64,000 nt of DNA from Rhodobacteraceae bacterium EhC02 (GTDB lineage Bacteria > Pseudomonadota > Alphaproteobacteria > Rhodobacterales > Rhodobacteraceae): assembly GCA_001650895.1 (NCBI GenBank), contig LXYH01000005.1, positions 1 through 64,000 on the forward strand, in the 5' to 3' direction. The first letter of the stretch is position 1. Each line of letters begins with the position of its first letter. The translations under genes were made by a program, and so were the position numbers. Shown here piece by piece: positions 930 to 24,922 of the stretch. The notes below the pieces were generated by a model, which did no database searches, was not told the DNA's origin, and saw only the letters and a list, made by a program, of their open reading frames with translations.

Positions 930-1889
930 TCATTCAAATTCGCTCAGTCGGTTTCTTCGCCACTTCAACGGCGATTGGCCGAAGGCTGATTTGAAAGTTG
1001 TTGATAGATGGGCTTGATTGGCAAAACCGGTGAGTTCGGCCAATTCACTGATCGGCAAGTGTGTGGTCGCCAGAAGCGATTTTGCAGTTTCGAGGCGGAT
1101 CATGCGATACTCCTCCATGACTGTTCGGCCGATGTGCTCTCGAAAAAGCCTGTGAAGTTGACGAACCGACAAGCCGGATAGCTCGGCCAATTGTGCTTGG
1201 TCCAATGGGTCCGCGATGTGCGTGTCCATATAGCCGAGCGCGGCTTCGACGGCTTGGGGCAGGGCTCCGTAACGTGCCGTGATGGAAGCTGTTTGAGGTG
1301 CATCAGCGCTTCGGATTTCGGTTTGAATAAACCAATTGGAGATCCTCTGCGCGAAAGCCATCCCATGGTCGCGTGAAATGATTGCGTGCATCATGTCGAG
1401 TGGTGCGGAGCCGCCAGCGCAGGTGTATCGCGTTCGGTCAATGACAAACAATCGTCGTTCGAGCAGCCATGTTCCCGGCATGGCATCAAAGTCGGCATAA
1501 TGGTGCCAGTGAACAGTGAACCGATGTCGATCCAGTAATCCCGCGCGTGCGAGGATCACTGACCCACCCGAAATCCCGCCAACCGCAATGCCTGAAGCGT
1601 CCAGTCGCCTTAACCACGCAAGGAAAGCCTGGTTCTGAACGGATCGCGGATTGCCCCCCGCAACGACGAAAACCAGATCGAAATCATGATCCACGCTATC
1701 GTAGGGTCGGGTGGAAAACTGTGAGCCCAGAGAAGAGACGGCCGTCTGCCCAGATAGGGAAAGCAGGGTGATTTCATAGGGCGGATGTTCAGAGAACTGG
1801 TTGGCAGCACGCAATGGTTCAAGCGCTGATGCCGTGGACATCAATGCAAATCCATCCAGCAAGACAAAGGCGATTTTCCTGAACTGCAT
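930..1889 (-). CDS. GATase1/AraC-family transcriptional regulator (GlxA/GbdR-like)
   Basis: A 319-residue protein. Residues about 1-180 form a DJ-1/PfpI (class I glutamine amidotransferase-like) domain and about 215-315 an AraC-type DNA-binding domain with two helix-turn-helix motifs (LAELSGLSVRQLHRLF and ISELAELTGFANQAHL). The usual nucleophile-elbow Cys of the amidotransferase fold is replaced (GGISGGS), as expected for a ligand-sensing rather than enzymatic domain. Known members of this architecture include GbdR, SouR and CdhR, which control glycine betaine, sarcosine and carnitine use. It is transcribed away from the soxBDAG-type operon with 97 bases between the start codons, so it is the likely activator of that operon. 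The ATG at 1889 was chosen because the fold begins directly there (MQFRKIAFVLLDGF); the frame stays open further upstream but would run into soxB. Confidence 0.88.
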   Translation of the reverse strand: MQFRKIAFVLLDGFALMSTASALEPLRAANQFSEHPPYEITLLSLSGQTAVSSLGSQFSTRPYDSVDHDFDLVFVVAGGNPRSVQNQAFLAWLRRLDASGIAVGGISGGSVILARAGLLDRHRFTVHWHHYADFDAMPGTWLLERRLFVIDRTRYTCAGGSAPLDMMHAIISRDHGMAFAQRISNWFIQTEIRSADAPQTASITARYGALPQAVEAALGYMDTHIADPLDQAQLAELSGLSVRQLHRLFREHIGRTVMEEYRMIRLETAKSLLATTHLPISELAELTGFANQAHLSTTFKSAFGQSPLKWRRNRLSEFE

Positions 1890-1986
1890 GCTTGGTGTGT
1901 CTATTTTCAATAAATAAATGTCAAACTTATAAAAAAAATTTTCGCCTGCCTCGGGTAGAAGAAGACAGAGTTCGAAGGGGCATAGA
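1890..1986. promoter_or_regulatory. Divergent promoter region, regulator / soxB
   Basis: The 97 bases between the divergent start codons are AT-rich, with an A-run and T-run around 1929-1945. They must hold both promoters and probably the operator of the GbdR-like regulator. I could not define individual boxes with confidence. A purine-rich GAAGGGG at 1974-1980 precedes the soxB ATG at usable spacing. Confidence 0.45.
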
Positions 1987-3237
1987 ATGCGGTTTTCCGG
2001 TTTCCGGGTCATCAAAGAGGCCTTTACAGGCCATAAGGGCTGGGGGCCTCTATGGAGAGATCCTGCGCCCAAGCCCGAGTATGATTTTGTGATCATCGGG
2101 GGCGGTGGTCATGGACTGGCGACAGCTTATTACCTCGCAAAGACCTTTGGCAGATCGCGGGTTGCCGTGCTCGAGAAAGGGTGGCTGGGGTCCGGAAACA
2201 TAGGACGAAATACAACGATCATTCGGTCCAACTATCTCTTGCCAGGCAATGAACCTTTCTATGAATTCTCCATGAAACTATGGGAAAATCTGGAGCAAGA
2301 AACGAACTTTAACTCGATGGTTTCTCAGCGGGGGATCATAAACCTGATCCACACTGATGCGCAACGCGATGCGTATCGTCGTCGCGGGAATGCCATGATT
2401 CTGGCGGGTGCCGACGCAGAGCTGTTGTCCCCGGATGAGCTGCGCAAAAAGGTTCCGTTCTTGAACTATGATAACGCGCGTTTCCCGATCAAAGGGGGGC
2501 TTTTGCAGAAACGTGCAGGCACTGCGCGCCATGATGGCGTGGCTTGGGGGTACGCGCGTGGCGCGGATACCCATGGTGTCGACATCATCCAGAACTGCGA
2601 AGTCACGGGGATGCGGATCAAGAGCGGGAAAATCCTCGGCGTTGAAACAACGAGAGGATATATCGCAGCAGGCAAAGTTGGTGTTGCGGTCGCAGGAAAC
2701 TCCAGCCGCGTCATGCACATGGCTGGAATGAGACTTCCTATCGAAAGCCACGTTCTACAGGCCTTTGTGTCGGAAGGGTTAAAGCCGGTCATTCCGGGTG
2801 TCATCACATTTGGAGCCGGACATTTCTATGTCAGCCAATCTGACAAGGGTGGGTTGGTGTTTGGTGGCGATATCGATGGCTATAATTCTTATGCGCAGCG
2901 CGGCAACCTGCCGGTCGTCGAGGACGTGCTGGAGGGTGGAATGGCGCTTATGCCGATGATCGGGCGTGCTCGGCTCTTGCGGAGTTGGGGGGGGATCATG
3001 GACATGTCGATGGACGGTTCGCCAATCATTGATCGGACTTCCATAGACGGTCTCTATTTCAATGGGGGGTGGTGCTACGGCGGCTTCAAGGCGACGCCCG
3101 CATCTGGCTATGCCTTCGCACATCTTCTCGCGACAGATCGTTCCCATGAGACAGCGCGAGCTTATCGGTTCGATCGGTTCGCACGTGGCTATCCTATTGA
3201 TGAAAAGGGCGTTGGTGCCCAACCTAACCTGCACTAA
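1987..3237 (+). CDS. soxB: Sarcosine oxidase beta-subunit family protein
   Basis: A 416-residue FAD-dependent oxidoreductase of the SoxB family. The dinucleotide-binding motif VIIGGGGHGLATAYYLA lies at about residues 35-51. His182 in the RHDGVAWGYAR segment matches the histidine that carries covalent FMN in heterotetrameric sarcosine oxidases. The C-terminal GG-CYGGFKATPASG segment is also typical. In the known enzyme the beta subunit oxidises the N-methyl group of sarcosine at FAD, passes electrons to FMN and then oxygen, and sends the methylene to folate on the alpha subunit. It is the first gene of a tight soxBDAG operon, nine bases before soxD. The altered SoxD next door means that the substrate need not be sarcosine. 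Confidence 0.9.
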   Translation: MRFSGFRVIKEAFTGHKGWGPLWRDPAPKPEYDFVIIGGGGHGLATAYYLAKTFGRSRVAVLEKGWLGSGNIGRNTTIIRSNYLLPGNEPFYEFSMKLWENLEQETNFNSMVSQRGIINLIHTDAQRDAYRRRGNAMILAGADAELLSPDELRKKVPFLNYDNARFPIKGGLLQKRAGTARHDGVAWGYARGADTHGVDIIQNCEVTGMRIKSGKILGVETTRGYIAAGKVGVAVAGNSSRVMHMAGMRLPIESHVLQAFVSEGLKPVIPGVITFGAGHFYVSQSDKGGLVFGGDIDGYNSYAQRGNLPVVEDVLEGGMALMPMIGRARLLRSWGGIMDMSMDGSPIIDRTSIDGLYFNGGWCYGGFKATPASGYAFAHLLATDRSHETARAYRFDRFARGYPIDEKGVGAQPNLH

Positions 3238-3246
3238 GGACCAAAG

Positions 3247-3534
3247 ATGTTGATCCCTCACCCGCTCCTTGGTCTTCGTGATGCTCAAGAATTCACCTAC
3301 CTTGGTGATGCTTCCCTTTTGAACCGCCCGGATGCAGCGTCTGGGGACGCGAGTAACGCGTTCAATGACTATGTTTTTCTGCGTGATAATCCGGCAGGTC
3401 TGCATCGTGAACTTTGGTATCATGAACAAGGGGACCGCTCTTGGCTGATCGTCACCCGCAATACTGTGACACATGAGGTCCTGGGGGCTGAACTTGCCCG
3501 CGACTATATTCTCAAGGCGGAGTTGCCGGCATGA
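3247..3534 (+). CDS. soxD: Sarcosine oxidase delta-subunit family protein lacking the zinc cysteines
   Basis: A 95-residue SoxD homologue, recognisable by EFTY near residue 15, FLRDNPAG-HRE-W in the middle and TRNTVTHEV toward the end. Family members normally bind zinc through a Cys-x-x-Cys near residue 6, a His near 59 and a Cys near 63. Here the first pair reads His5 and Leu8 (IPHPLLGLR), His59 is kept and the last Cys is Asp63 (YHEQGDRSW). The site has therefore lost all three cysteines; it could be empty or rebuilt with His/His/Asp. AAGGA precedes the ATG, and the 3' end overlaps soxA by ATGA. Confidence 0.85.
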   Translation: MLIPHPLLGLRDAQEFTYLGDASLLNRPDAASGDASNAFNDYVFLRDNPAGLHRELWYHEQGDRSWLIVTRNTVTHEVLGAELARDYILKAELPA

Positions 3535-6473
3535 CCCGATTGAGTGGTGGCCTCATCGATCATTCTGCGCCGGTTCAATTTTCGTTTAATGGAAGACCCT
3601 ACACTGGATGCAAAGGTGATACGCTTGCCTCTGCATTACTCGCAAACGGTGTTCAGCTGGTGGGGCGCAGTTTCAAGTACCACCGCCCGCGTGGAGTTCT
3701 GAGCGCGGGGTCTGAAGAGCCGAATGCGCTTGTCACCCTTCACGATGGCGCACGCAAAGAACCAAATACACGCGCCACAGTTACCGAACTCTATGACGGG
3801 TTGGTCGCCCGTAGCCAAAACCATGTTGGTCCATTGAACCGTGACTTCATGGCGGTGAATGATCTGCTGGCACCATTTTTTGCAGCCGGTTTCTACTACA
3901 AGACCTTTATGTGGCCTCGCGCCTTTTGGGAAAAATTGTATGAACCATTGATCCGTCAAGCCGCTGGGCTTGGCCGTCTATCGCTGGAACCCGATCCGGA
4001 TGCCTACGACAAAGGGTTCCTGCACTGCGATCTTCTGGTTGTCGGTGGCGGGGCTGCGGGGCTGGTTGCTGCGTTAGTGGCTGGTCGCGCGGGGGCGCAG
4101 GTCATTCTGGCCGATGAAGATTTCCAGTGGGGTGGGCGCCTGCTGGCGGAAAGTCACCATTTGGACGAGGCGCCCGCGGCCGAATGGGTCGGCAAGGTCA
4201 TCGCGGAACTCAGCGGGCTTGGCAATGTGCGGATCATGCCGCGAACCACTGTATTCGGGGCCTATGATCACGGCATCCATGGTGCCGTTGAGCGGGTATC
4301 CGATCACCTGCCCAACGCCAAAGGGATGGTTCGTCAAACCCTTTGGCGGATTACTGCGAAACGGACGGTTTTGGCCGCTGGCGCAACCGAACGGCATATT
4401 CCATTTGAAAACAACGACCGGCCAGGGATCATGCTGGCTGGCGCAATGCGCGCCTATGCAAATCGTTGGGCAGCTGCGCCGACACGGTCACAAAGCGACC
4501 CGGTCGCGGTTTTCGCAAACAATGATGACGGCCACCGCACGGCGTTGGATCTTTTGGCCAAAGGCATACCGGTTTCGGCTGTCATTGATCCACGGACGGA
4601 TGCGAAACGACTGGGTGACTATGAGCTGATCACCGGTGTGGTTGATGGGACCAAAGGTCGATTGGGCGTGACCGCGATCCGTGTGACGCAAAATGGCAGC
4701 TCCCATTGGATGCCGTGTGGAGCGCTAGGTGTCGCGGGCGGGTGGAACCCGAATGTGCATCTTAGCTCCCATCACAAGAGCAGACCAATTTGGGATGCGA
4801 ACCTTTTGGCCTTTGTTCCAGGAAAAGATTTGCCTGCAGGAATGGTAGTTGCCGGCGCGGCGGTTGGTCAAATGACCACGGCCAAGGCGCTGCGAAGTGG
4901 CATGGATGCCGCCCTCGACAGCTTGGCCGGTCTAGGAATAACCGCAAAGCCGATCGATCTGCCAAGGGCCGAGGATACAGCAGTCACACAATCGGCGTTT
5001 TGGCATGTGGCGGGGAAAGGGCGCGCCTGGGTCGATTTCCAGAACGATGTCACGGTCAAGGATATCGCTCTTGCTCATAAGGAAAACATGCGACCTGTTG
5101 AACATCTCAAGCGTTGGACCACGCTGGGAATGGCTACGGATCAGGGTAAGACCTCGAATATTTCGGCCTTGGCCGTGATGGCTGAACTCACGGGTAAAAC
5201 ACTGCCTGAAACTGGCACGACGGTGTTCAGGCCGCCCTATACTGGTGTGTCCCTCTCGGTGCTGGGGGGCGGCGACACCGGTTCACATTTTCGTCCTACG
5301 CGGTTCACACCGGCGCACAGCTGGAGTGCCCAGAATGGCGCCACCTTTATCGAGGTTGGGGCATGGCTGCGTGCTCAGTATTTTGTGCGACCAGGTGAAA
5401 GCCACTGGCGCCAATCCGTCGACAGAGAAGTATTGGCGGTTCGCGGAAATGTCGGGCTGTGCGATGTCACCACTCTGGGAAAAATTGATGTTCAGGGTGT
5501 TGATGCTGCCGAGTTCCTGAACCGTGTTTACTGTAACATGATGGGAAGCCTGGCGGTTGGTCGTGTGCGGTATGGGCTGATGCTCAGAGAGGACGGGCAT
5601 GCCTATGATGACGGTACTTGCGCGCGGCTTGCCGAAACGCATTTCGTCGTGACAACCACCACGGCGAATGCGGCTCTTGTCTATCGCAACATGGAATTCG
5701 CTCGGCAGTGCCTCTGGCCCGAGTTGGATGTGCATCTGATATCGACAACGGATGCCTGGGCACAGATTGCTGTCGCTGGTCCCAAGTCGCGAGAACTGTT
5801 GTCACGCATTGTCGATGATTTTGATTTATCGAACGAGGCATTCCCCTTTATGGCCTGCGCAGAATTGACCGTTTGCAAGGGTCTAAGGGCGCGCTTGTTC
5901 CGCATATCGTTCTCAGGGGAGCTGGCCTATGAAATTGCGGTTCCTGCGCGCTTTGGGAACGCATTGATGGAGCGCTTGATGCAACGTGGTGTCGATCTGG
6001 GCGTGACGGCCTATGGTACTGAAGCGCTGGGTGTCATGCGGATCGAAAAAGGTCACGCCGCTGGCGCAGAGTTGAACGGCCAAACCACGGCTCAAATGTT
6101 GTCTCTTGGGCGGATGGTGTCGCAAAAGAAAGACAGCATTGGTGCCGTCATGTCGCGCCGGGAAGGGCTTGAACTGGATAAAAGGCGCTTGGTCGGGTTC
6201 AGACCATCGAACCCAGCAGAGGTAATCGCACCGGGGTCGCATTTGTTTGCCGCAGGTACAGAACGCACCATGCAATCAGACCAGGGCTGGATCACATCCG
6301 CCGCCTATTCACCACATGTCGGTTCGTCAATCGGCCTTGGCTTTCTGGAGGAGGGCGATGTTCGATTGGGCGAAGTCGTGATAGCGGCCAATCCATTGGA
6401 GGGACGTGAGGTTCGTGTAGAAGTCGTTTCGCCACATTTCGTTGACCCCGATGGAGACCGTCTCCGTGACTGA
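3531..6473 (+). CDS. soxA: Sarcosine oxidase alpha-subunit family protein
   Basis: A 980-residue protein with full SoxA architecture. An N-terminal ferredoxin-like/2Fe-2S-fold part without cluster cysteines carries the family block LVGRSFKYHRPRG and SAGSEEPNAL. A FAD/NAD-binding Rossmann region follows (VVGGGAAGLVAALVAGRAGA, about residues 168-187). The C-terminal third resembles GcvT aminomethyltransferases (TTLGKIDVQG, YGTEALGVMRIEKGH) and binds tetrahydrofolate. In the known complex this subunit binds NAD and converts the imine to glycine plus methylene-tetrahydrofolate. Length is normal and no frameshift is visible. It starts inside the soxD stop codon (ATGA) and overlaps soxG, so the four subunits are translationally coupled. 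Confidence 0.93.
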   Translation: MTRLSGGLIDHSAPVQFSFNGRPYTGCKGDTLASALLANGVQLVGRSFKYHRPRGVLSAGSEEPNALVTLHDGARKEPNTRATVTELYDGLVARSQNHVGPLNRDFMAVNDLLAPFFAAGFYYKTFMWPRAFWEKLYEPLIRQAAGLGRLSLEPDPDAYDKGFLHCDLLVVGGGAAGLVAALVAGRAGAQVILADEDFQWGGRLLAESHHLDEAPAAEWVGKVIAELSGLGNVRIMPRTTVFGAYDHGIHGAVERVSDHLPNAKGMVRQTLWRITAKRTVLAAGATERHIPFENNDRPGIMLAGAMRAYANRWAAAPTRSQSDPVAVFANNDDGHRTALDLLAKGIPVSAVIDPRTDAKRLGDYELITGVVDGTKGRLGVTAIRVTQNGSSHWMPCGALGVAGGWNPNVHLSSHHKSRPIWDANLLAFVPGKDLPAGMVVAGAAVGQMTTAKALRSGMDAALDSLAGLGITAKPIDLPRAEDTAVTQSAFWHVAGKGRAWVDFQNDVTVKDIALAHKENMRPVEHLKRWTTLGMATDQGKTSNISALAVMAELTGKTLPETGTTVFRPPYTGVSLSVLGGGDTGSHFRPTRFTPAHSWSAQNGATFIEVGAWLRAQYFVRPGESHWRQSVDREVLAVRGNVGLCDVTTLGKIDVQGVDAAEFLNRVYCNMMGSLAVGRVRYGLMLREDGHAYDDGTCARLAETHFVVTTTTANAALVYRNMEFARQCLWPELDVHLISTTDAWAQIAVAGPKSRELLSRIVDDFDLSNEAFPFMACAELTVCKGLRARLFRISFSGELAYEIAVPARFGNALMERLMQRGVDLGVTAYGTEALGVMRIEKGHAAGAELNGQTTAQMLSLGRMVSQKKDSIGAVMSRREGLELDKRRLVGFRPSNPAEVIAPGSHLFAAGTERTMQSDQGWITSAAYSPHVGSSIGLGFLEEGDVRLGEVVIAANPLEGREVRVEVVSPHFVDPDGDRLRD

Positions 6474-7020
6474 TCTGGCTGCCATCACCGCGCTTGGAGA
6501 GTCCGCCCCGTTTCGTGCCGAAATCGGAGCGCTCACACTCATCGAAAACAGTAATCTCGCGCTGGCCTCGTTGAGTGTGCCACGCGGTCAGAATGTTCCG
6601 ATGATCTTTGAAATGACCCTGCCCGAAGTTGGGCAGTGGCAAGCTGGTGCAGATATTTCTGCCTTTTGGACTGCCCCGAACCAATGGATTATCGAAGGCC
6701 ACAACCGCGCAAATGAAGATTTTGCAGAATTGGTAAAGCGCGCTGCCCCCGACTGTTGTGTCACAGAGCAAACTGACGGTTGGGTCGCCTTCGATATTTT
6801 TTCGAATGACGGGTCAAAACCCATCGCGGATTTATTGGAAAAATTGGTGAACATCGATGTCAACGCCCTGAAAACTGGGACAGCAGTGAGGACGGGTCTC
6901 CATCATATGAGTGTTTACCTGATCCGACGTCGTGACGAACAAATCACGATTGTCGGAATGAGGTCCCTGGCTGGAGCCTTGTGCCACGCTCTCGAAACGG
7001 CGGCGATGCGGCTAAGATAG
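6451..7020 (+). CDS. soxG: Sarcosine oxidase gamma-subunit family protein
   Basis: A 189-residue SoxG-like protein, the least conserved subunit of the heterotetramer and related to the GcvT fold. Recognition rests on the segment WTAPNQWIIEG and the C-terminal GTAVRTGLHHMSVYLIRR, plus position directly after soxA. The ATG at 6451 overlaps soxA by 23 bases; a GTG at 6466 or a TTG at 6442 are alternatives. The stop overlaps the 3' end of the convergent LysR gene by nine bases, so the two transcripts are complementary at their ends and no separate terminator fits between them. Confidence 0.85.
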   Translation: METVSVTDLAAITALGESAPFRAEIGALTLIENSNLALASLSVPRGQNVPMIFEMTLPEVGQWQAGADISAFWTAPNQWIIEGHNRANEDFAELVKRAAPDCCVTEQTDGWVAFDIFSNDGSKPIADLLEKLVNIDVNALKTGTAVRTGLHHMSVYLIRRRDEQITIVGMRSLAGALCHALETAAMRLR

Positions 7021-7914
7021 GGTTATGACGTCATGATCAGACAGGCGGTGCGTGGTGTCGTGAATAATGGTGACAGCCTCGTCTATGAACCGCGAGGATG
7101 AGGTCTGTTCGCGCACGTAGAGGTACACATTGCGCATATCAGGCAGGTCAGAGATGGTTCTGAACGCCAACCCCTCTGGCGCGATTTCCGTGACGAGTTG
7201 AGGTAGCACCGTTACCCAATCGCTCTGTCGAACCATGGCCAAAAGCGACTGCGTGTTGTGAACGGTGATGTCCGCTTTACCCAAGCTCTCGGCAAACGCG
7301 GGTGTCTCGATCTGTTCACACAATGCGTTGCGCAAAAATGGGGCGGTAAAGACGTCTTCAATCCTCAGCGGTCCAGGTTTGTGAACCAAAGGGTGATTTG
7401 CTGACATGACGAGGCCGAATTGATCACTGAACAACAGTGTTGTCTTTATCCCGTTTAATGTTTTTCGCGCCGAAGCTATGCCAATGTCGGCCCAGCTTTG
7501 TCCGATCGATTCAAGGACTTGCTGCGTATCAGTGTCGCGCAATTCGATCTTTAACGAAGGGTGGCGTTCTGAAAGTGTGCGGACAAGTTCGGGAAAAACC
7601 GAAATGGCCACTGACGGAACGGCAGTTATTCGAAGGATGCCCTGGGGCGAGCGCGCGGATTTTTCAATAGCCGCAATCGTGTTGTCGAACTGGCTGATTT
7701 GGCTCAGGCCAAGTCGCAAAACCTGTTCGCCCAGCGGCGTGAGACGGTTTTTGCGTTCGCTCTCAAACAGTGGATTGGCCAAGTGAGCCTCGAGTTGTTT
7801 CAGTGTCATGGAGACTGCTGATTGTGTCCGCCCCAATTGATCCGCCGCGTCAGATAGGTTGCCGGCCTGCGCCACTGCGCAGAAGCTGCGCAGCATTTCG
7901 ATCTTTATGCTCAT
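7012..7914 (-). CDS. LysR-family transcriptional regulator
   Basis: A 300-residue LysR-type regulator. The winged helix-turn-helix is at residues about 4-62 (MLRSFCAVAQAGNLSDAADQ, then LGRTQSAVSMTLKQLE), and the effector-binding domain covers about 90-290. It is transcribed divergently from the aldehyde dehydrogenase operon across about 100 bases. That is the usual LysR arrangement and makes the downstream operon its likely target; its inducer is unknown. The ATG at 7914 puts the helix-turn-helix at the normal distance from the N-terminus. Its 3' end overlaps soxG by nine bases. Confidence 0.9.
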   Translation of the reverse strand: MSIKIEMLRSFCAVAQAGNLSDAADQLGRTQSAVSMTLKQLEAHLANPLFESERKNRLTPLGEQVLRLGLSQISQFDNTIAAIEKSARSPQGILRITAVPSVAISVFPELVRTLSERHPSLKIELRDTDTQQVLESIGQSWADIGIASARKTLNGIKTTLLFSDQFGLVMSANHPLVHKPGPLRIEDVFTAPFLRNALCEQIETPAFAESLGKADITVHNTQSLLAMVRQSDWVTVLPQLVTEIAPEGLAFRTISDLPDMRNVYLYVREQTSSSRFIDEAVTIIHDTTHRLSDHDVITLS

Positions 7915-8015
7915 GGCTTCAGAAATCCTGAAATTTATTTCAACAATTCGAGTTTGACTGATGTGGGTGAAATTGTCCACCATGGCGCACACAACAGAAA
8001 AGATTGAGATGGACC
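7915..8015. promoter_or_regulatory. Divergent promoter region between LysR gene and dehydrogenase operon
   Basis: The 101-base gap holds ATTTCA near 7935 and TGAAAT near 7967 as an interrupted inverted repeat. This is compatible with, but not proof of, a LysR binding region. No other open frame lies here. Confidence 0.35.
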
Positions 8016-9458: not shown

Positions 9459-10441
9459 TGCGTATCGATGCCCTTCAATATGCGAACTGGTCAGAAGAGA
9501 TTTTCCAACAGCTGCGCGAGGGGGGCGTGGACGCGATCCACGTCACTATCGCCTATCATGAGAACTTTCGTGAAACGGTTCTGAATTTCGAACGGTGGAA
9601 CCGCTGGTTCGAGCAATATGAACATTTGATCATGAAAGGTCTTTGGGCGCGCGATATTGATCGTGCGCGCGAAACAGGCCGGACGGCCGTGTTTTTCGGA
9701 TTTCAGAATCCGTCGCCGATGGAAGACGATATCGGGTTGGTTGAAATACTGCACACGCTCGGCGCGCGTTTCATGCAGTTGACCTATAACAACCAATCAT
9801 TGCTGGCGACCGGATGCTACGAGGCTGAGGACTCCGGCATAACCAGGATGGGGCGTCAGGTCATCAAGGAAATGAACCGCGTCGGCCTTGTCATCGACAT
9901 GAGCCATTCGGGGGATCGCTCAACCATCGAGGCCGCGGATATATCGGAACGGCCCATCGTGATCACCCATGCCAATCCGTTTGAATGGTCCCCCGCTTTG
10001 AGGAATAAAAAGGACAATGTCATCCGTGCAGTCACTGAAAACGGCGGGATGATTGGATTTTCGCTTTATCCACACCATCTCAAGGACAAATCAAACTGTT
10101 CTATAGAGGAGTTCTGCGGGATGGTGGCACGTGCGGCGGATCGCTTTGGGGTCAAGAACATCGGAATTGGCTCTGACTTGTGTCAGAACCAGCCCGACAG
10201 CGTTGTCGAGTGGATGCGCGTCGGTCGGTGGAGCAAAGACATCGACTATGGAGAAGGCTCCGCCACGGCAGCGGGGTTCCCTCCGATGCCACACTGGTTC
10301 AAGGACAACCGCGACTTTGGCAACCTCGAGCGGGGTCTGCGCGACGTCGGAATGAATGCCGAAGAGATTGCAGCGGTCATGGGGAAAAATTGGTATCGCT
10401 TTTTTGAAGAGAACTTTGTCCCGCAAGGCACCCTGAAATGA
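9458..10441 (+). CDS. M19 (renal dipeptidase)-family protein with an altered metal site
   Basis: A 327-residue member of the M19 amidohydrolase family, shown by MGRQVIKEMNRVGLVIDMSH and IVITHANP (His150 and His171, second-metal ligands) and IGIGSDL near residue 238. The first metal site of true dipeptidases needs His-x-Asp near the N-terminus and a bridging Glu. Here the N-terminus reads MRIDALQYANW and the Glu region reads FFGFQNPSP, so His, Asp and Glu are replaced by Leu6, Tyr8 and Gln83. The protein is therefore unlikely to be an ordinary binuclear dipeptidase; a one-metal hydrolase on a small amide or ring substrate is possible. The ATG at 9458 overlaps the dehydrogenase stop; the 3' end overlaps the next gene by ATGA. 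Confidence 0.85.
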   Translation: MRIDALQYANWSEEIFQQLREGGVDAIHVTIAYHENFRETVLNFERWNRWFEQYEHLIMKGLWARDIDRARETGRTAVFFGFQNPSPMEDDIGLVEILHTLGARFMQLTYNNQSLLATGCYEAEDSGITRMGRQVIKEMNRVGLVIDMSHSGDRSTIEAADISERPIVITHANPFEWSPALRNKKDNVIRAVTENGGMIGFSLYPHHLKDKSNCSIEEFCGMVARAADRFGVKNIGIGSDLCQNQPDSVVEWMRVGRWSKDIDYGEGSATAAGFPPMPHWFKDNRDFGNLERGLRDVGMNAEEIAAVMGKNWYRFFEENFVPQGTLK

Positions 10442-12105
10442 TCGCGCGCCGTTCTCCAGATGTGGTGATGACACTCGCCCGTCTTGGATCTCTGCATCAA
10501 TCACGGTTGAGTTTTATGCGGCAGTTGACGCGGCGGATGGCGCGTGAGGCATGGACGTTCCGGACACATACCTTCGACATTGACGATCAGGGGGTTGGCC
10601 ATGCGGTGTATACCGCACAGGGCCCGGAACGTGTCTATTCCCTGGTTGCCTTTGCCCATGATTTGCCGCCCGAGATGCGGTCTGACCGCGTCATTGCAAC
10701 GGCTTGGGATGCGACGTTCACGCTATTTGACGGTGTTCCCTCCGCCGAAGACATTGATCGCCTTTCGCAGAATATACCTGTCCAGGAAGCTGGCCGTGTG
10801 AGTGAGCGGGAGTTGACGGTAAGCCGTGCCAATCGATCTGTAAGGCTGTGGGAGCACTTTGTTGATGCTTTGGCAGCGGGGCAACAACCTGATCCTGATC
10901 AACTCGAAGCAGTTGGGTACTTGATGCGCACAACGGCTGTTTACGGGTCCGGCAAGCTTGGTGCTGCTGATCGCGAAGTGATCGAAAATCGTCCTGAAAT
11001 GCAGGCGCCATTTCAGGCTGAAATGCTGACTGTGTACCTTATCCGTTGGTTCGTTCGGGATCTCGTCGAACATATGGCCCGTGCAAAAGGCGGCGCTAAC
11101 GCCGTGCGGCTGGATCCCGGTATGGCGCGGCGGCTTGGGATCGGGAACTCGACCGGGTTGGGCATGGCGCCGTTCATCGTCAATCACCCAGTGCTGTTCA
11201 ATAATTGGATCATGGCGCGAGAAGAAGCCATTGCCCGTGTGCGTAGCATTGATCAGGCCGCTGAGGATGATGTCACATGTTTCACCGACTTGCTCGGGCG
11301 CGCCGAGATATCCGTTGCGGCCTGGCGCACTGAGCATCCGGTTCAGATCGCAAAGCTGAATGATCTCAAGGCCGATATCGGAATTCTCAAATCTCATCTG
11401 ATGTCTGTCAATTGGAACGCCCACCTGCCTTGGGATGATCTTTTGAATTGGTCCGAAGGTCATCTTTCCTCAGAAGGTCAGGAGTGGTTGGCTTCGCTTG
11501 TGCTGGAGCCTTATGGCGATATCGTTGACGGGCTATGCAGTTGCATGGCCGACAGCTATTCGCAGGCCAACATCATCAATGGTGCAATGCCTCTTAAGGA
11601 TGTGCGTGAATTGATCGAACAAAGCTTTGGATGGGCTTTGGCGGTTGATTGGGCCGATCCGGCGCAGACGGCGCTGGCTTGGTATGTGTCGGAAGAAAAG
11701 CTCGAACCGCGTTTGGGCAATCGGTTCGAGGAGCCGATCGCATCCTACGAACAACCGCTCGCTCCTGCACGGGACGCTGCTGAAGCCTATCGAAAGGCCG
11801 GAAAATTTCCGGGCGATGCGACGACAGCTGCATTTCTGGAAAAACACCCCGAATGCAGACACACTGTTCGACGTGCTCAGATGGCCCGTTTCGCACCCTA
11901 TGCGGAAATTCGGTCCAACACGATTGCATCAGATGTTTTGCCGATCGACATGTTGCGGGCAAAACTTTCATTTTTCGGGGTAACACATTTTGACCCTCGT
12001 TCTGATCGGTGGGTGCGGGTGTGTATGTATGCAGGCGCGCCATATCCTTTGGACTTGAGTAGTCACAACTTTGACCACTGGATCTATCCCGAGGCCATCC
12101 AATGA
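10438..12105 (+). CDS. Conserved-looking protein of unknown function, 555 residues
   Basis: I do not recognise this family. The protein is 555 residues, probably cytoplasmic (no signal peptide or membrane segment), largely helical and acidic. Visible landmarks are a central segment RRLGIGNSTGLGMAPFIVNH, a CSCMADSYSQANIINGAMPL stretch near residue 370, HPECRHTVRRAQMARFAPYA near 485, and an aromatic C-terminus (SSHNFDHWIYPEAIQ). It overlaps the M19-like gene upstream and the DUF3726 gene downstream by ATGA each, so all three are translationally coupled and probably work on one substrate. No nucleotide-binding or classical catalytic motif is evident. It could be an enzyme of the pathway or a scaffold for DUF3726. 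Confidence 0.85.
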   Translation: MIARRSPDVVMTLARLGSLHQSRLSFMRQLTRRMAREAWTFRTHTFDIDDQGVGHAVYTAQGPERVYSLVAFAHDLPPEMRSDRVIATAWDATFTLFDGVPSAEDIDRLSQNIPVQEAGRVSERELTVSRANRSVRLWEHFVDALAAGQQPDPDQLEAVGYLMRTTAVYGSGKLGAADREVIENRPEMQAPFQAEMLTVYLIRWFVRDLVEHMARAKGGANAVRLDPGMARRLGIGNSTGLGMAPFIVNHPVLFNNWIMAREEAIARVRSIDQAAEDDVTCFTDLLGRAEISVAAWRTEHPVQIAKLNDLKADIGILKSHLMSVNWNAHLPWDDLLNWSEGHLSSEGQEWLASLVLEPYGDIVDGLCSCMADSYSQANIINGAMPLKDVRELIEQSFGWALAVDWADPAQTALAWYVSEEKLEPRLGNRFEEPIASYEQPLAPARDAAEAYRKAGKFPGDATTAAFLEKHPECRHTVRRAQMARFAPYAEIRSNTIASDVLPIDMLRAKLSFFGVTHFDPRSDRWVRVCMYAGAPYPLDLSSHNFDHWIYPEAIQ

Positions 12106-12674
12106 CCATGTCGCTCAATGAAGTGGATGCGATGGTCCGCAAGGCTGCGCGTGGCGCTGGCCTTGATTGGGGTTTGGCAGAAGAGGCGGGTCGTGCCGCA
12201 CGGTGGCTGTGTGCCCAGGGACAGGACGGTGTCGGTGCCGCGGCCAAGGCCTTGGCGGGCCCCAAAACGGATCGCTGTACTGTTTCGTCGGGTGCGCGTT
12301 TGGCAGACTGTGCTGCCGACTTGCGCAATGGTCCAGCCCGGTTCAAGGATGTGTTGACCCCCCAGCTGTTTTTACCGTTTGCCGCCCTGGCCGCAAAAAT
12401 GTTGCAGGTGACGATTGAAGTCGACTGTGATGGGCATCGCGCCATGACTGATGGGCAGTCCTTGACCCTGTCAGATGACTTTCCCGATCACGCATCGATT
12501 GTAACCGTTCGCGTGATTGATGTCCCGGTTGGCATCGAGTGCCCGATGTCTCGCGCAATGCCGGATCCGGAAGACTGGGCTCAACTGGAAGCCCTCGCAA
12601 AGCTTACCTATGCCCCGGCAACCGATGAAAGCCGCCTGAATGGCGCTGGTGCCGGATTGTCCGACAATGATTGA
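12102..12674 (+). CDS. DUF3726 family protein
   Basis: A 190-residue protein whose N-terminus (SLNEVDAMVRKAARGAGLDW, then GLAEEAGRAARWL) matches the DUF3726 family pattern. No biochemical function is known to me for this family. The remainder is alanine-rich, with two short Asp/His-containing strands (DCDGHRAM; DFPDHASIVTVRVIDVP) that hint at a mixed alpha/beta fold. It overlaps the 555-residue protein upstream by four bases and is 12 bases from the Ldh2-family gene downstream. The strict coupling to the 555-residue protein suggests that the two form a complex. Confidence 0.8.
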   Translation: MTMSLNEVDAMVRKAARGAGLDWGLAEEAGRAARWLCAQGQDGVGAAAKALAGPKTDRCTVSSGARLADCAADLRNGPARFKDVLTPQLFLPFAALAAKMLQVTIEVDCDGHRAMTDGQSLTLSDDFPDHASIVTVRVIDVPVGIECPMSRAMPDPEDWAQLEALAKLTYAPATDESRLNGAGAGLSDND

Positions 12675-12686
12675 TCAGAGGCTCCC

Positions 12687-13697
12687 ATGATTGAAACCCG
12701 CACAATGTCGCTACAAGCGATTGAAGAACTTGCAATGCGCGCACTTGTGGCAGCAGGAACCTCGGAAAAAAACGCACGTTCTCTTGCTATCGCGACTGCA
12801 GCGACCGAAGCTGACGGCGTGTCGAGCCACGGGCTTGCCTATATCCCGATCTACTGTGAGCATGTGCAATGTGGCAAGGTCGATGGACAGGCCGTTCCGC
12901 TGCTCACGCGCCCTCGGCCTGGAGTGGTGAAAGTGGATGCGGCAACCGGATTTCCTCATGCTGCAATTGATCAAGGTTTCGCTCAGCTCATCCCGCTTGC
13001 CAAGGAATTGGGAGTTGCCGCTCTGGCAATCGACAACAGCTATAACTGTGGTGTGCTGGGGTATCACACCTACCGCCTTGCAAAGGCGGGTTTGGTAGGA
13101 ATTGGGTTTACCAATGCCCCTGCCTCGATTGCGCCATCTGGAGGGGCAAAGCCGGTCGTCGGAACGAACCCATTTTCTGTCGCTGTACCAAGCGAGAATG
13201 GCGAACCCGTCATTCTGATTGATCAATCGGCAAGTACGATCGCAAAGTCCGAAGTGATGAAACATGCACGTGAGGGGCGGCCCATTCCGGTTGGATGGGC
13301 TCTCGACCCAGAAGGCAATCCGACGACAGACCCTCAGGTTGGCTTGAAAGGGTCAATGTCACCGTCGGGTGGTTACAAGGGTGTCGGTATCGCCTTGCTG
13401 ACCGAATTGATGGCGGCAGCGCTGACGGGCGCAACCTTGGGTGTTGATGCTTCACCGTTTTCCGGAACCGCGGGCGGACCCCCGAAGACCGGACAGTTCT
13501 TTCTAGCTATCGATCCGGCGGCCACTTCGGGTGGGCATTTTGCTGATCGTGTGTCACGCCTCGTATCGGTGTTCCACGATCAAGACGGTGCTCATCTTCC
13601 CGGTGATGGGCGTCGCGCAAAAAGAGCCAAGGCACAGCTCGCTGGTGTCGCAGTAAATGTCGCGATCCTCGATAAAATCGACGCAATCATCAACTGA
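12687..13697 (+). CDS. Ldh2/malate dehydrogenase-family NAD(P)-dependent oxidoreductase
   Basis: A 336-residue member of the malate/L-lactate dehydrogenase type 2 family (YlbC/DpkA/AllD fold). The catalytic His sits in SSHGL near residue 50, and further family blocks are SYNCGVLGYHTY, GTNPFSVAVP, WALDPEGNPTTDP and GGYKGVGIALL. Characterised relatives reduce 2-oxo acids, ureidoglycolate, or cyclic imines such as delta1-pyrroline- and delta1-piperideine-2-carboxylate, and one makes N-methyl-L-amino acids. The neighbouring N-demethylating oxidase and betaine importer make an imine or N-methylamino-acid substrate attractive, but this is inference. It is the last gene of the operon and is followed by a hairpin. 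Confidence 0.88.
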   Translation: MIETRTMSLQAIEELAMRALVAAGTSEKNARSLAIATAATEADGVSSHGLAYIPIYCEHVQCGKVDGQAVPLLTRPRPGVVKVDAATGFPHAAIDQGFAQLIPLAKELGVAALAIDNSYNCGVLGYHTYRLAKAGLVGIGFTNAPASIAPSGGAKPVVGTNPFSVAVPSENGEPVILIDQSASTIAKSEVMKHAREGRPIPVGWALDPEGNPTTDPQVGLKGSMSPSGGYKGVGIALLTELMAAALTGATLGVDASPFSGTAGGPPKTGQFFLAIDPAATSGGHFADRVSRLVSVFHDQDGAHLPGDGRRAKRAKAQLAGVAVNVAILDKIDAIIN

Positions 13698-13727
13698 GTT
13701 GGCGTGAGCTTGTGAGAGAATTCTGGA

Positions 13728-13762
13728 AGGCGGACACCACAGAAATGGTGTGGTCTCCGCCT
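13728..13762 (+). terminator. Hairpin after the dehydrogenase operon
   Basis: Bases 13728-13741 and 13749-13762 pair over 14 positions with one mismatch around a 7-base loop, 30 bases after the Ldh2-family stop. There is no T-run, so it may be a weak or factor-assisted terminator or an mRNA-stabilising hairpin. Confidence 0.55.
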
Positions 13763-14026
13763 ATCCATGCGCTTGGGTTCTGTTGCTTTCCCACTTCAAT
13801 AAATGTGTAACTGAGTTTAGAAATATTTGTTTGCCTGAAGGCCCTTCTTCCTGAATATTTGACAGGCCTGTTGCTCGGTTTTGGCGTGGTCCTTGCTGAA
13901 TTTAAGAGTGCAAATGAAATGGCCGTCGTCGCATCGCGCAAACGCAATGCGAAATGAAAATTTGCAGTTTGCGGCGGGAACAAGCCGTTCTGCACTGGAA
14001 CTCAGAAATACTCAGGGAGAGTAAAT
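13763..14026 (+). promoter_or_regulatory. Upstream region of the betaine-type importer
   Basis: No gene is supported in this 264-base leader. A TTGACA at 13859-13864 could be a -35 element, but I see no good -10 at standard distance. AGGGAGAG at 14014-14021 is a clear ribosome-binding site for the ATG at 14027. Confidence 0.4.
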
Positions 14027-14989
14027 ATGAAAAAACTACTGCTTGCCGGCGCTTTTGGCGCACTTGCTGCTCCGACTGCGGCCCTGGCCGAATGCGGTGA
14101 GGTTTCGGTTGCCGAAATGAACTGGTCATCTGCCTCTATCATCAGCAAGATCACTGAATTCTTGATGGTTCAAGGCTATGGCTGCGACGTCACTTTGGTG
14201 CCCTCTGCAACGACCACTGCGGTAACGTCGTTGGCAGAAAACAATGAACCGGATGTTGTGCCGGAACTCTGGGTCAATTCGGCACCGCTTTACAACCAGC
14301 TTGAAGCTGAAGGTAAGGCAATCACCGCAGCGAACGTTTTCTCTGATGGTGGTACCGAAGCCTGGTTTGTTCCAGATTACGTCGTCGCGGAACACCCTGA
14401 ATTGGCGACCATCGATGGTATTCTTGCCAATCCCGAATTGGTTGGTGGCCGTTTCCATAACTGTCCCGATGGTTGGGGCTGCCGTATCGCCAACGACAAT
14501 CTGGTAAAAGCGTTCGACTTTGCCGGGCATGGTATGGAAGTGTTCAACCACGGTTCGGGTGAAACGCTGGCGGCTGCAATGGCATCGGCTTATGAAAACA
14601 AAGAGCCGTTCTTTGGCTACATGTATGGCCCGACTGCCGTTCTGGGACGTTACGCGATGGTTGCCGTAGACATGGGGCCATATGATGCCGATATCCACGC
14701 ATGCAACCAGACGGTTGATTGTGCGACACCGGCCAAATCGTCCTATCCTGCTGCACCGGTCTTGACGGTTGTGACTGCAGATTTTGCCGAGCGTAACCCC
14801 GAGGCCTTTGATCTCGTCAGCAAGATCACTTTCACATCGCTCGAACTGAGCCAGCTTTTGGCATGGCAGGCCGACAACGGTGCATCCTCCGAAGAAGCCG
14901 CAGTCCATTTTCTCATGCAAAACAAGGACACTGTCATGGGGTGGGTCAGCGAAGAAGCCGCTGCCAAATTGAGCGCGATCCTCAAGTAA
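14027..14989 (+). CDS. ABC transporter substrate-binding protein, glycine betaine/proline type (OpuAC family)
   Basis: A 320-residue periplasmic protein with a signal peptide (MKKLLLAGAFGALAAPTAAL, cleavage after ALA). The mature part follows the OpuAC fold: AEMNWSSASI, PDVVPELWVNS, TEAWFVPDYV and CPDGWGCRIAN supply the tryptophans that normally cage a quaternary ammonium group. Cys pairs (HNCPDGWGC and CNQTVDC) may form disulfides in the periplasm. The transport ligand is most likely a betaine or other N-methylated zwitterion, which fits the demethylating oxidase upstream. A strong terminator-like hairpin separates it from the permease gene, so it is probably made in excess of the membrane parts. 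Confidence 0.9.
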   Translation: MKKLLLAGAFGALAAPTAALAECGEVSVAEMNWSSASIISKITEFLMVQGYGCDVTLVPSATTTAVTSLAENNEPDVVPELWVNSAPLYNQLEAEGKAITAANVFSDGGTEAWFVPDYVVAEHPELATIDGILANPELVGGRFHNCPDGWGCRIANDNLVKAFDFAGHGMEVFNHGSGETLAAAMASAYENKEPFFGYMYGPTAVLGRYAMVAVDMGPYDADIHACNQTVDCATPAKSSYPAAPVLTVVTADFAERNPEAFDLVSKITFTSLELSQLLAWQADNGASSEEAAVHFLMQNKDTVMGWVSEEAAAKLSAILK

Positions 14990-14997
14990 ACCAAATG

Positions 14998-15031
14998 CTG
15001 GGGCGGATATGAATCCGCCCCAGTTTTTTTT
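14998..15031 (+). terminator. Intrinsic terminator between binding-protein and permease genes
   Basis: A perfect 11-bp stem (CTGGGGCGGAT at 14998-15008 with ATCCGCCCCAG at 15013-15023), a 4-base loop and eight T residues (15024-15031). It begins nine bases after the binding-protein stop and precedes the permease start by 31 bases. It most likely causes partial termination inside the operon. Confidence 0.88.
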
Positions 15032-15062
15032 AATTGCATGAGTATGCAAAGAGGTCGGTCTG

Positions 15063-16112
15063 ATGGCGACATATGATTTTATCTTTGATGGCGCGGGTCT
15101 TAGGGACTGGTGCGGCGTCAAGGTGTCAACTGGACCGGTAACCATGGCCGAGCTTCTTGCGGGCGCAGGAAAGACTGAAAGCGGAAGCTTCTGGGATAAA
15201 GCGCTGGCCTTACCATTCCCGTCCTTGGACGCATTGAACGAAGCCTGTCCGTCGCTTGCGCGGACCCGTGATTTGACCAAGGCCGTCGAAAACGGATTCC
15301 TGGGTGCGAAAGACAGCCTGAAAGTTGTTCTTGACCCGTTGACCCAGCCACTGAGTTGGTTGCTCGAGGGCGCTCTCTGGCTCTTTGATGCGACGCCATG
15401 GTGGTTGATGATACCGCTGATCCTTCTGCTTGTGCATTTTGCGTCCAAATCTATCCAGCTGGTTGGTTTCGTGGCCTCTGCACTCTTGTTCCTGTCGTTT
15501 ATCGACCACTACTCATTCGCGATGGAGACGCTGTCGATCATCTTTGTCTGCGCGACACTCTGTGTGATATTCGGCGTGCCTATTGGCATTGCGATGTCTC
15601 GAAGTGATCGCATGCAGCGGATCATGATCCCGATATTGGATATGCTCCAAACCTTGCCAACGTTCGTTTATCTGATCCCGCTGATTTTCCTGTTCTCGGT
15701 GACTGAACCGAAACTCTACGGTATTGCGATAATCCTGTATGCCATTGTTCCTGTTGTCAGATTGACGGATCTGGGCATCCGGCTTGTCAATAAGGAAGTG
15801 ATCGAGGCCGCAGACGCCTTTGGCATGACCAAACGTCAGAAGCTCTACAGCGTTCAAATCCCTTTGGCGCTGCCCAACATTATGGCTGGCGTGAACCAGA
15901 CGATCATGATGAGCCTTGCCATGGTGGTGATTGCGTCGCTTGTTTCGGCCCCTGGTTTGGGCGTGTTGGTATTGCGCGGCATCCGCAACTTGGAGCTTGG
16001 TGTCGGGCTGGTTGCAGGCCTTGGAATCGTATTGCTCGCCGTCATTCTTGACCGCGTGACCAAGGCAGCGCTGGCGCGTGTAAATGCGTCGAATAGCGTC
16101 CCGCGCCACTAA
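15063..16112 (+). CDS. ABC transporter permease, glycine betaine/proline type (OpuAB/ProW family)
   Basis: A 349-residue integral membrane protein. About 115 soluble residues precede the membrane part, which starts near WWLMIPLILLLVHFA and has about six to seven segments. The binding-protein-dependent permease signature with the EAADAFGMTKRQKLYSVQIP coupling helix lies near residue 260, followed by LALPNIMAGVNQTIMMSLAM, typical of ProW-type permeases. The long N-terminal extension occurs in this family. It partners the binding protein and the ATPase on either side; the ATPase start lies 10 bases after its stop. Confidence 0.92.
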   Translation: MATYDFIFDGAGLRDWCGVKVSTGPVTMAELLAGAGKTESGSFWDKALALPFPSLDALNEACPSLARTRDLTKAVENGFLGAKDSLKVVLDPLTQPLSWLLEGALWLFDATPWWLMIPLILLLVHFASKSIQLVGFVASALLFLSFIDHYSFAMETLSIIFVCATLCVIFGVPIGIAMSRSDRMQRIMIPILDMLQTLPTFVYLIPLIFLFSVTEPKLYGIAIILYAIVPVVRLTDLGIRLVNKEVIEAADAFGMTKRQKLYSVQIPLALPNIMAGVNQTIMMSLAMVVIASLVSAPGLGVLVLRGIRNLELGVGLVAGLGIVLLAVILDRVTKAALARVNASNSVPRH

Positions 16113-16122
16113 GGATCGAAAA

Positions 16123-17187
16123 ATGACAGACCAGGTAAGCATCTCGATCCGCAATCTCTACAAAATATTCGGGTCCAACCCGCAAGACGCGCTCGAGAAA
16201 GTATACAATGGCGCGAGTAAAAAAGAACTGATGGACCAGTACCGCCATGTCTTGGGACTGAGCGATATCAATGTTGATATGCACGCAGGCAAGATAACAG
16301 TGATCATGGGCCTATCGGGCTCGGGTAAATCTACTTTGATCCGCCACGTGAACCGATTGATTGAACCGACCGCCGGTGAAATTTGGGTCGACGGTGAGAA
16401 CGTACTTGATTTTTCGGAGGAACGCCTCCGCGAAATGCGCCGCTCAAGCATGTCGATGGTGTTTCAACACTTTGCTCTGTTGCCGCATCGCACTGTCTTG
16501 GACAACACGGGATTGGCCCAGTCCGTACGCGGCGAGAACAAGCAGGGCTATGAAAAGGATGCGTTGAAATGGCTCGAGCGTGTTGGGCTGGGCGGGCAGG
16601 GAGGTCAGTACCCGCATCAACTTTCCGGAGGCATGCAGCAGCGCGTCGGTATCGCGCGCGCTTTGACATCTAACGCGCCAATCATGCTCATGGACGAAGC
16701 TTTTTCTGCGCTCGATCCGCTGATCCGCACCGATATGCAAGATCTTCTGTTGGAGCTGCAAGACGAGTTGCATAAAACCATCGTTTTTATCAGTCACGAT
16801 CTCGACGAGGCACTAAAGCTGGCCGATCATTTGGTTATTCTGAAAGATGGTCGAGTGGTTCAACAGGGTGAGCCGCAGGAGATTTTGTTGCATCCGAATG
16901 ATCCCTACATCGTCGATTTCATTTCGGACATTAACCGCGCCCGTGTACTGCGGGTCAGATCGATCATGATGGCCTTAGGGTCAGATTTGGAAAGACCGAT
17001 CGTTGGAGAGGTCGACGCCGAAGATACTCTTGAATCAGTGATTGCGCGATCGGGTGGTGATGCCGACCAGAACTTCCGTGTCATGACCGATGGTGTACCA
17101 GTTGGCTTTGTCAGTATGCGGTCTCTGGTGCGGGCTTTGGTTCCGTCGAGTGCCAGCGCCGGTGGAATGCGCAGCAAAGCAAGCTGA
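16123..17187 (+). CDS. ABC transporter ATP-binding protein, glycine betaine/proline type (OpuAA/ProV family)
   Basis: A 354-residue ATPase: Walker [10 protein letters not shown], signature [10 protein letters not shown], Walker [13 protein letters not shown] and the switch His in [18 protein letters not shown]-terminal extension of about 100 residues has the CBS-like region found in ProV/OpuAA, which senses ionic strength in studied homologues. The N-terminal block [14 protein letters not shown] is also typical. The ATG at 16123 (GGATCG ahead of it) is preferred over the in-frame ATG at 16084, which would overlap the permease. The stop at 17185-17187 is followed almost at once by IS6 transposase remnant sequence. 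Confidence 0.92.
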
Positions 17188-19803: not shown

Positions 19804-19843
19804 CCGTGGTTCTCCTTGGTTCAGGCGGCGCGCTGCGCCGAGA

Positions 19844-21366: not shown

Positions 21367-21587
21367 CAAGCTCGCTCTCGATCCGACCACGACATTAGGA
21401 TCTGCGAGTGAACAAATGCTTTACCGGCAAAGAGATACCTCAAATTGGAAGCATCTGCCGAAAAAGCCTGAGGCGGAAACTCCCTGTTAAGCTCTGGCTG
21501 TCAGATTGGGCATTGGATCGGTGGTCGGAAAGGACCGACGGCGCGATGGATGCGCGCCCCGCAGATACGGAACAGGAAAGGGCAGAG
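21367..21587. promoter_or_regulatory. Divergent promoter region of the chemotaxis cluster
   Basis: About 220 bases separate cheB from the STAS gene. A frame is open upstream of the STAS ATG (from 21408), but it lacks domain content, so I treat it as leader. AGGAAAGGG at 21574-21582 is a good ribosome-binding site for the ATG at 21588 and fixes that start. Confidence 0.5.
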
Positions 21588-22252: not shown

Positions 22253-22254
22253 CC

Positions 22255-24411: not shown

Positions 24412-24414
24412 GCC

Positions 24415-24888: not shown

Positions 24889-24922
24889 ACTTTGGCACTG
24901 TGGTGAAGCATGAGGTTCTGGC

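What the first reader, a model, noticed from the sequence alone, without database searches (positions are those of the whole stretch)
930..17187. Candidate undescribed pathway for an N-methylated amino acid or betaine
One block combines a GbdR-like regulator, a full SoxBDAG-type N-demethylating oxidase, a betaine-type importer, and an operon of KGSA-dehydrogenase-like enzyme, M19-like protein, 555-residue unknown, DUF3726 and an Ldh2-family reductase. None of the standard glycine-betaine genes (betaine demethylase, dimethylglycine dehydrogenase, glycine-cleavage or serine genes) is present. Overlapping starts and stops tie the unknown proteins to the enzymes. Uptake, demethylation and processing to a central metabolite can be drawn, but for which substrate is open.
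Basis: inference. Interest (0 to 1): 0.82.

Follow-up and report, generated by a model that had tools for sequence, protein, structure and literature searches.

The report
Probable homarine breakdown gene cluster
This stretch probably lets a bacterium import homarine, a common marine compound, and turn it into glutamate; that pathway was reported in 2026, but its ring-opening step seems to rest on proteins of an unknown kind.

Summary
Three corrections. (1) The SoxBDAG-type oxidase is of the N-methylglutamate dehydrogenase (MgdABCD) type: its close relatives go with gmaS, while this genome has no GmaS over the cut-off and two other soxB genes. (2) The AraC gene is TmaR-like by position and architecture. 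(3) LysR plus ALDH, M19-like, 555-aa protein, DUF3726 and Ldh2 is a conserved unit in Rhodobacteraceae and relatives, repeatedly beside betaine-type importers (OpuABC or BCCT) and sometimes beside Mgd. This fits breakdown of homarine (N-methylpicolinate) to glutamate through N-methylglutamate, reported in 2026; I saw only a paper citing it, and the operon name homABCDER is recalled. So it is a member of a known kind, not undescribed. Substrate and single steps were not shown here. The 555-aa protein has no Pfam or NCBIfam hit and its model no significant PDB match; DUF3726 may be a shortened Ldh2-type partner (weak evidence). Against: 26 of 46 family genomes with the 555-aa gene lack an Mgd-type soxB, and only 3 of the 20 with both have them close together. 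Divergent relatives sit in other clusters, so the module is probably wider than homarine.

The parts
930..1889 (-). AraC-family regulator, TmaR-like (listed ORF 930-2096; probable start 1889)
   Evidence: DJ-1/PfpI + HTH_18; 42-45% identical to the AraC divergent from Mgd-type soxB in L147, L148, L157, L158; in L148 that gene lies between gmaS and soxB. Identity to TmaR SPO1584 itself not measured.
1987..3237 (+). mgdA-type (soxB-like) subunit
   Evidence: TIGR01373 672 bits, over cut-off; gmaS-associated type
3247..3534 (+). mgdB-type (soxD-like) subunit
   Evidence: Pfam SoxD; TIGR01374 84 bits, below cut-off 116.5
3531..6473 (+). mgdC-type (soxA-like) subunit
   Evidence: TIGR01372 1270 bits, over cut-off; related to solved sarcosine oxidase alpha chains
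6442..7020 (+). mgdD-type (soxG-like) subunit (TTG start)
   Evidence: TIGR01375 37 bits, far below cut-off 144; position
7012..7914 (-). LysR regulator of the operon (listed ORF to 8169; probable start 7914)
   Evidence: HTH_1 and LysR_substrate; LysR in 72 of 80 named loci
8004..9458 (+). aldehyde dehydrogenase (TTG start)
   Evidence: Aldedh; nearest NCBIfam models are 2-oxoglutaric semialdehyde dehydrogenases, below their cut-offs; best PDB sequences are betaine aldehyde dehydrogenases
9455..10441 (+). altered M19-like hydrolase
   Evidence: Peptidase_M19 1.6e-71; nearest PDB chain 2i5g 'amidohydrolase'
10438..12105 (+). 555-aa protein of unknown fold, candidate ring-opening enzyme
   Evidence: no Pfam or NCBIfam hit; no PDB fold match at E<=0.001
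12102..12674 (+). DUF3726 protein, candidate partner of the 555-aa protein
   Evidence: PF12525; beside the 555-aa gene in 41 of the 42 family genomes that have it
12687..13697 (+). Ldh2-family reductase
   Evidence: Ldh_2; best PDB match delta1-piperideine-2-carboxylate reductase 1wtj
14027..14989 (+). importer, substrate-binding protein
   Evidence: OpuAC
15063..16112 (+). importer, permease
   Evidence: BPD_transp_1
16084..17187 (+). importer, ATPase
   Evidence: ABC_tran

Best explanation
A cluster for uptake and breakdown of homarine (N-methylpicolinate) to glutamate. The OpuABC importer takes it up. The 555-aa protein, probably with DUF3726, opens the ring between C5 and C6, so that C6 stays on the nitrogen as a formyl group and C5 becomes an aldehyde. 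ALDH oxidises the aldehyde. The altered M19 hydrolase removes the formyl group and leaves an N-methyl enamine/imine of 2-oxoglutarate. The Ldh2 enzyme reduces it to N-methylglutamate. MgdABCD removes the methyl group, giving glutamate and a one-carbon unit on folate. LysR controls the operon, the TmaR-like AraC controls mgd. Shown here: gene families, conservation of the unit, gmaS-associated type of the oxidase, betaine type of the importers. From a citing paper or recall: homarine as substrate, Mgd as last step. Inferred: each step between homarine and N-methylglutamate, and both regulator roles.
For: Mgd-type soxB in 30 of 100 family genomes, GmaS over cut-off in 31, both in 22 (Fisher P 6e-9); gmaS next to such a soxB in G278 and G309, the latter with GATase and glutamate-synthase-type genes; own genome lacks GmaS over the cut-off (best 238.5 against 469.6 bits) and has two other soxB genes. 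Of 8 genomes with this soxB and no GmaS, 6 have the 555-aa gene. Unit conserved. Beside Mgd genes in L031, L032, L041, L063 and partly L086 of 80 loci, and in P. inhibens, TM1040, G313, G324. Betaine-type importers: OpuABC (window, L031, L119, L126, L131, Aminobacter) or BCCT (P. inhibens, TM1040). Ldh2 nearest to a cyclic-imine reductase. A 2026 paper states that Mgd participates in homarine catabolism, citing Ferrer-Gonzalez et al. (passages).
Against: The homarine paper could not be read, so gene-by-gene identity is untested. 26 of 46 family genomes with the 555-aa gene have no soxB of 74% or more; of 20 with both, only G000, G313 and G324 have them within about 12 kb. The 555-aa gene also goes with GmaS (P 0.017), so shared lifestyle may explain part of the association with Mgd (P 0.009; relatedness not corrected). 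ALDH resembles betaine aldehyde dehydrogenases most among solved structures. PMC8269262 reports that R. pomeroyi grew on homarine less well than on trigonelline, whereas PMC12817926 reports fast homarine drawdown. No experiment.
Confidence: 0.82

Rival explanations
1. The same route, but for another N-methylated substrate that ends in N-methylglutamate (for example trigonelline or an N-methylated proline-type betaine).
For: The substrate is not readable from sequence; N-methylglutamate as intermediate and betaine uptake are what the genes support.
Against: The known trigonelline system uses TgnA/TgnB (passage) and no such genes were identified in the block; the citing paper links Mgd to homarine by name.
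Confidence: 0.12
2. M19, the 555-aa protein and DUF3726 form one complex that does the whole ring opening and release of the lost carbon, rather than three separate steps.
For: M19 occurs in 28 and DUF3726 in at least 23 of 31 diverse stretches, while a close ALDH occurs in 8 and Ldh2 in 12. The strongly conserved DUF3726 tail is poorly placed in the single-chain model, as for a piece that docks on a partner.
Against: M19 is parted from the 555-aa gene by a BCCT gene or lies on the other strand in several loci, and no M19 was found in L164 and L168.
Confidence: 0.3
3. A sarcosine or glycine-betaine demethylation cluster with unrelated neighbours.
For: TIGR01373 and TIGR01372 name the large subunits sarcosine oxidase family; OpuAC importer.
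Against: The oxidase is of the gmaS-associated type; another soxB type sits elsewhere in this genome and forms a separate branch (100/98).
Confidence: 0.05

Closest known systems
Homarine catabolism (Ferrer-Gonzalez et al. 2026, doi 10.1038/s41564-026-02313-7; not read; operon name homABCDER recalled)
   Same: Mgd takes part (citing passage); one regulator plus five further genes (recalled count); marine Rhodobacteraceae.
   Different: Gene-by-gene identity not compared.
N-methylglutamate pathway: GmaS, Mgs, MgdABCD with TmaR (R. pomeroyi SPO1584-1588; PMC13390433, passages)
   Same: Same type of oxidase and an AraC-type gene beside it.
   Different: No GmaS over the cut-off in this genome; the source of N-methylglutamate must be another.
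Trigonelline degradation (TgnAB; passage in PMC8269262; further enzymes recalled)
   Same: N-methylpyridinium carboxylate; ring opening, then aldehyde dehydrogenase and hydrolase (recalled).
   Different: No TgnA/TgnB-like gene identified in the block; the paper holds TgnAB unlikely to act on homarine.
PDB 2i5g amidohydrolase (P. aeruginosa PA5396 and its place beside demethylase genes: recalled)
   Same: Same altered M19 type along the aligned stretch.
   Different: Neighbouring genes differ (recalled).

Membership tests
Homarine catabolic operon | Orthology of all genes to the published hom operon | not testable with these tools
   Paper not held.
Homarine catabolic operon | Coupling to N-methylglutamate dehydrogenase | tested here: met
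   Met in the window and in L031, L032, L041, L063, P. inhibens, TM1040, G313, G324; only 20 of 46 family genomes with the 555-aa gene have an Mgd-type soxB at all.
Homarine catabolic operon | Growth on or conversion of homarine | not testable with these tools
   Needs an experiment.
N-methylglutamate dehydrogenase MgdABCD | Groups with gmaS-linked oxidases apart from the other SoxB type | tested here: met
   the gmaS-linked rows are not themselves one supported clade, and the other type was not itself proven to be sarcosine oxidase.
N-methylglutamate dehydrogenase MgdABCD | Four subunits in the order B, D, A, G | tested here: met
TmaR | AraC-type gene next to mgdABCD, more than 44% identical to SPO1584 in its main clade | tested here: inconclusive
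   Type and position met; SPO1584 sequence not at hand.
Peptidase family M19, classical two-metal dipeptidase | N-terminal HxD and the bridging Glu (motifs recalled) | tested here: not met
   IDALQYANW in place of the HxD stretch, Gln84 where GliJ has Glu; H151, H172 and D241 are kept in 41 sequences.
Ldh2 family, for DUF3726 | Significant sequence or fold match | tested here: inconclusive
   First 13 Foldseek rows are Ldh2 family but E is 0.1-0.7; profile P about 0.001 over 26-54 residues, probability about 20%.
Trigonelline pathway | TgnA/TgnB-type monooxygenase and reductase | tested here: not met
   No such family among the block's Pfam/NCBIfam hits; the rest of the genome not searched.

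The most novel reading that the evidence does not exclude
The 555-aa protein, a catalytically reduced Ldh2-derived partner (DUF3726) and a metal-depleted M19 hydrolase form a new kind of enzyme system that opens N-substituted heteroaromatic or related rings, without a recognisable flavin or iron oxygenase. Homarine is one substrate only: relatives under IclR control with other importers in Sinorhizobium, Alloyangia and Variovorax, and one in a haloarchaeon, act on other compounds.
Probability: 0.33. Interest if true: 0.78.

Novelty: new member of a known kind. Interest (0 to 1): 0.5.

Why it matters
It turns an 'unknown betaine' cluster into a concrete, testable homarine-to-glutamate route, corrects a sarcosine oxidase label that is probably wrong for this oxidase type in many genomes, and singles out the 555-aa protein, DUF3726 and an altered M19 hydrolase as the unexplained chemistry of degrading an abundant marine compound. 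Divergent clusters suggest that this chemistry serves other substrates too.

Tried and rejected
Sarcosine/glycine-betaine demethylation: rejected as main reading. NCBIfam SoxD/SoxG scores as a test between Mgd and the other type: no use, all tested fragments of both types fall below the cut-offs. A PDB fold for the 555-aa protein: none at E<=0.001 (mean pLDDT 80.5, with four poorly predicted stretches). Partners in the DUF3726 position in Alloyangia, S. meliloti and Mesorhizobium: no Pfam hit at 0.01, and profile comparison not significant for the first two. Natrinema partner: Ldh_2 4.8e-9 but just below the gathering score, weak against both profiles (P 0.0095 and 0.015), no PDB sequence match. 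DUF3726 in the paper library: no paper. The first family search used a wrong accession and says nothing.

Rows dropped and limits: one search kept 80 of 242 loci. One search counts any tblastn hit in the locus; for ALDH and soxB I set weak hits aside as stated. Diverse class stretches were fetched for 30 of the 32 other genomes with a match (31 stretches, several cut by contig ends). One search was cut in view and contains wrong-frame ORFs, so its counts are minima. One search left out L086 (no complete soxB). One search used 44 of 46 loci for the 555-aa protein, 40 for M19, 29 for DUF3726. Structure alignments used 51 and 48 of the 80 loci. One search's match list was cut at its weak end.
Full report
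What is there. ALDH, M19, 555-aa and DUF3726 genes overlap by four bases each; Ldh2 follows after 12 bases and the importer after 329. The window is G000:C5:1-64000 of a genome of 4.09 Mb in 60 contigs. The best named match to the 555-aa protein is Marivivens donghaensis (79%), where all 14 genes are found in the same order.

How conserved the unit is. The 555-aa protein has a match in 33 of 240 genomes of the class, 46 of 100 of the family and 22 of 299 of the phylum sample, eight of these outside the class. DUF3726 (PF12525) matches in 42 of the same 100 family genomes; in 41 it lies within 100 bases of a 555-aa match, the exception being G295; five genomes with the 555-aa gene show no DUF3726 match. 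In the best 80 of 242 named loci: DUF3726 80, M19 78, LysR 72, Ldh2 71, a close ALDH 71. In 31 more diverse class stretches: M19 28, DUF3726 15 by tblastn plus at least 8 by weaker matches, Ldh2 12, a close ALDH 8, all three importer genes 3. LysR, ALDH, M19 and the 555-aa gene also lie together in L183, L184, L185 and L188, from outside the class, and in L186.

The oxidase is of the N-methylglutamate dehydrogenase type. Among 100 family genomes, soxB genes at least 74% identical to the window's occur in 30; GmaS, first enzyme of the N-methylglutamate pathway, is over its cut-off in 31; 22 have both (Fisher P 6e-9; relatedness not corrected, though each genome is from another genus). In G309 and G278 gmaS matches end about 20 and 110 bases from such a soxB, and G309 adds GATase and glutamate-synthase-type genes. 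G000, 99.97% complete, has no GmaS over the cut-off but two further soxB genes, at C4 (69%) and C34 (50%). In a tree of 28 SoxB rows the four 69-70% rows separate with 100/98 support; the window row lies outside them with the gmaS-linked rows, which are not one supported clade themselves. Eight genomes have this soxB without GmaS; six of them have the 555-aa gene. So in this organism Mgd seems to need a source of N-methylglutamate other than methylamine, and the next operon is the obvious candidate.

What speaks against a simple picture. 26 of 46 family genomes with the 555-aa gene have no Mgd-type soxB. Of 20 with both, only G000, G313 and G324 have them within about 12 kb. The 555-aa gene is associated with Mgd (P 0.009) but also with GmaS (P 0.017); among genomes without GmaS the association with Mgd has P 0.046. 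DMGDH-like single-chain proteins lie near some members (L120, L122, L128, L142, L189, L192) and might replace Mgd; this is a guess.

Regulators and importers. The AraC protein is 42-45% identical to AraC proteins divergent from Mgd-type soxB in four stretches, one of them between gmaS and soxB with the same domains. PMC13390433 (passages) describes TmaR (SPO1584), an AraC-type activator next to mgdABCD (SPO1585-1588), says that Mgd participates in homarine catabolism, citing Ferrer-Gonzalez et al. 2026, and suggests a TmaR role there. The importer changes but stays betaine-like: OpuABC in the window, L031, Aminobacter aminovorans, L119, L126 and L131, and beside Mgd-type soxB in L152; BCCT inside the operon in P. 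inhibens and TM1040.

Proposed chemistry (inference). Homarine has seven carbons, N-methylglutamate six; C6, between nitrogen and C5, must go. Cleavage between C5 and C6 leaves an N-formyl group and a C5 aldehyde, as recalled for trigonelline. The families then fit: an ALDH whose nearest NCBIfam models are 2-oxoglutaric semialdehyde dehydrogenases, though 470 bits against a cut-off of 770 and with betaine aldehyde dehydrogenases as best PDB matches; an altered amidohydrolase for the formyl group; an Ldh2 enzyme whose best PDB match is delta1-piperideine-2-carboxylate reductase (best NCBIfam model sulfolactate dehydrogenase, below cut-off; activity of the former on N-methyl imines recalled); and Mgd. 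The ring opener is the 555-aa protein by elimination. In 45 sequences down to 26% identity it keeps 12 arginines in at least 93%, one histidine (96%) and no cysteine, unlike a usual iron site. PMC8269262 holds TgnAB unlikely to act on homarine (passage).

DUF3726. Its model (pLDDT 91) has Ldh2-family chains in the first 13 Foldseek rows, with E 0.1-0.7. Profile comparison with Ldh2 gives P about 0.001 over 26-54 N-terminal residues, probability about 20%. In the haloarchaeon Natrinema the gene after the 555-aa relative hits Ldh_2 at 4.8e-9, 36.2 bits against 38.8. I read DUF3726 as a shortened Ldh2-type partner at about even odds.

Beyond homarine. Relatives at 28-31% identity in S. meliloti pSymB, Alloyangia and Variovorax stand behind an IclR gene and before a partner in the DUF3726 position and an M19 gene, with other importers nearby; Rid-type genes lie near in the first two. 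Likeness of those partners to DUF3726 rests on position and size only. Mesorhizobium and Natrinema show the 555-aa gene and a partner without an M19 match. MttB-type and Rieske proteins flank some class members (L128, L139). These substrates are unknown.

What is known. The homarine pathway is in print by the citation above; I could not read that paper. That its operon is homABCDER, with N-methylglutamate and glutamate as products, is recalled. In the listings of the held library I saw no other paper that looked to be about these genes, and no paper holds 'DUF3726'.

Noticed in passing
L128 (3384-5024, 5155-7653), L139 (47-1240): Some class members of the 555-aa/M19 pair are flanked by MttB-type methyltransferase, Rieske oxygenase (weakly GbcA-like) and DMGDH-like genes instead of Mgd.
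   Followed up: partly
L164:9100-11630: A haloarchaeal plasmid (Natrinema versiforme) carries a 33% relative of the 555-aa protein followed by a 317-aa gene with a sub-threshold Ldh_2 hit, with ALDH and BCCT genes near.
   Followed up: partly
L142:14384-15387: In P. inhibens DSM 17395 the Ldh2 homologue appears as two matches in different frames and is not in the gene table, so it may be broken; the table leaves out pseudogenes.
   Followed up: no
G154 (L112, L129), G240, G423, G501: Some genomes carry two copies of the 555-aa gene, in G154 with quite different neighbours.
   Followed up: no
window 17848-25843: A chemotaxis cluster (Cache-type MCP, CheB, CheA, CheR) lies directly beyond the importer genes.
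   Followed up: no
window 57126-60536 (-): A 1136-residue ORF without a Pfam hit at 1e-8.
   Followed up: no
G000:C34:199891-201105: A third, only 50% identical soxB-like gene set in the same genome, a type found in many family members.
   Followed up: no
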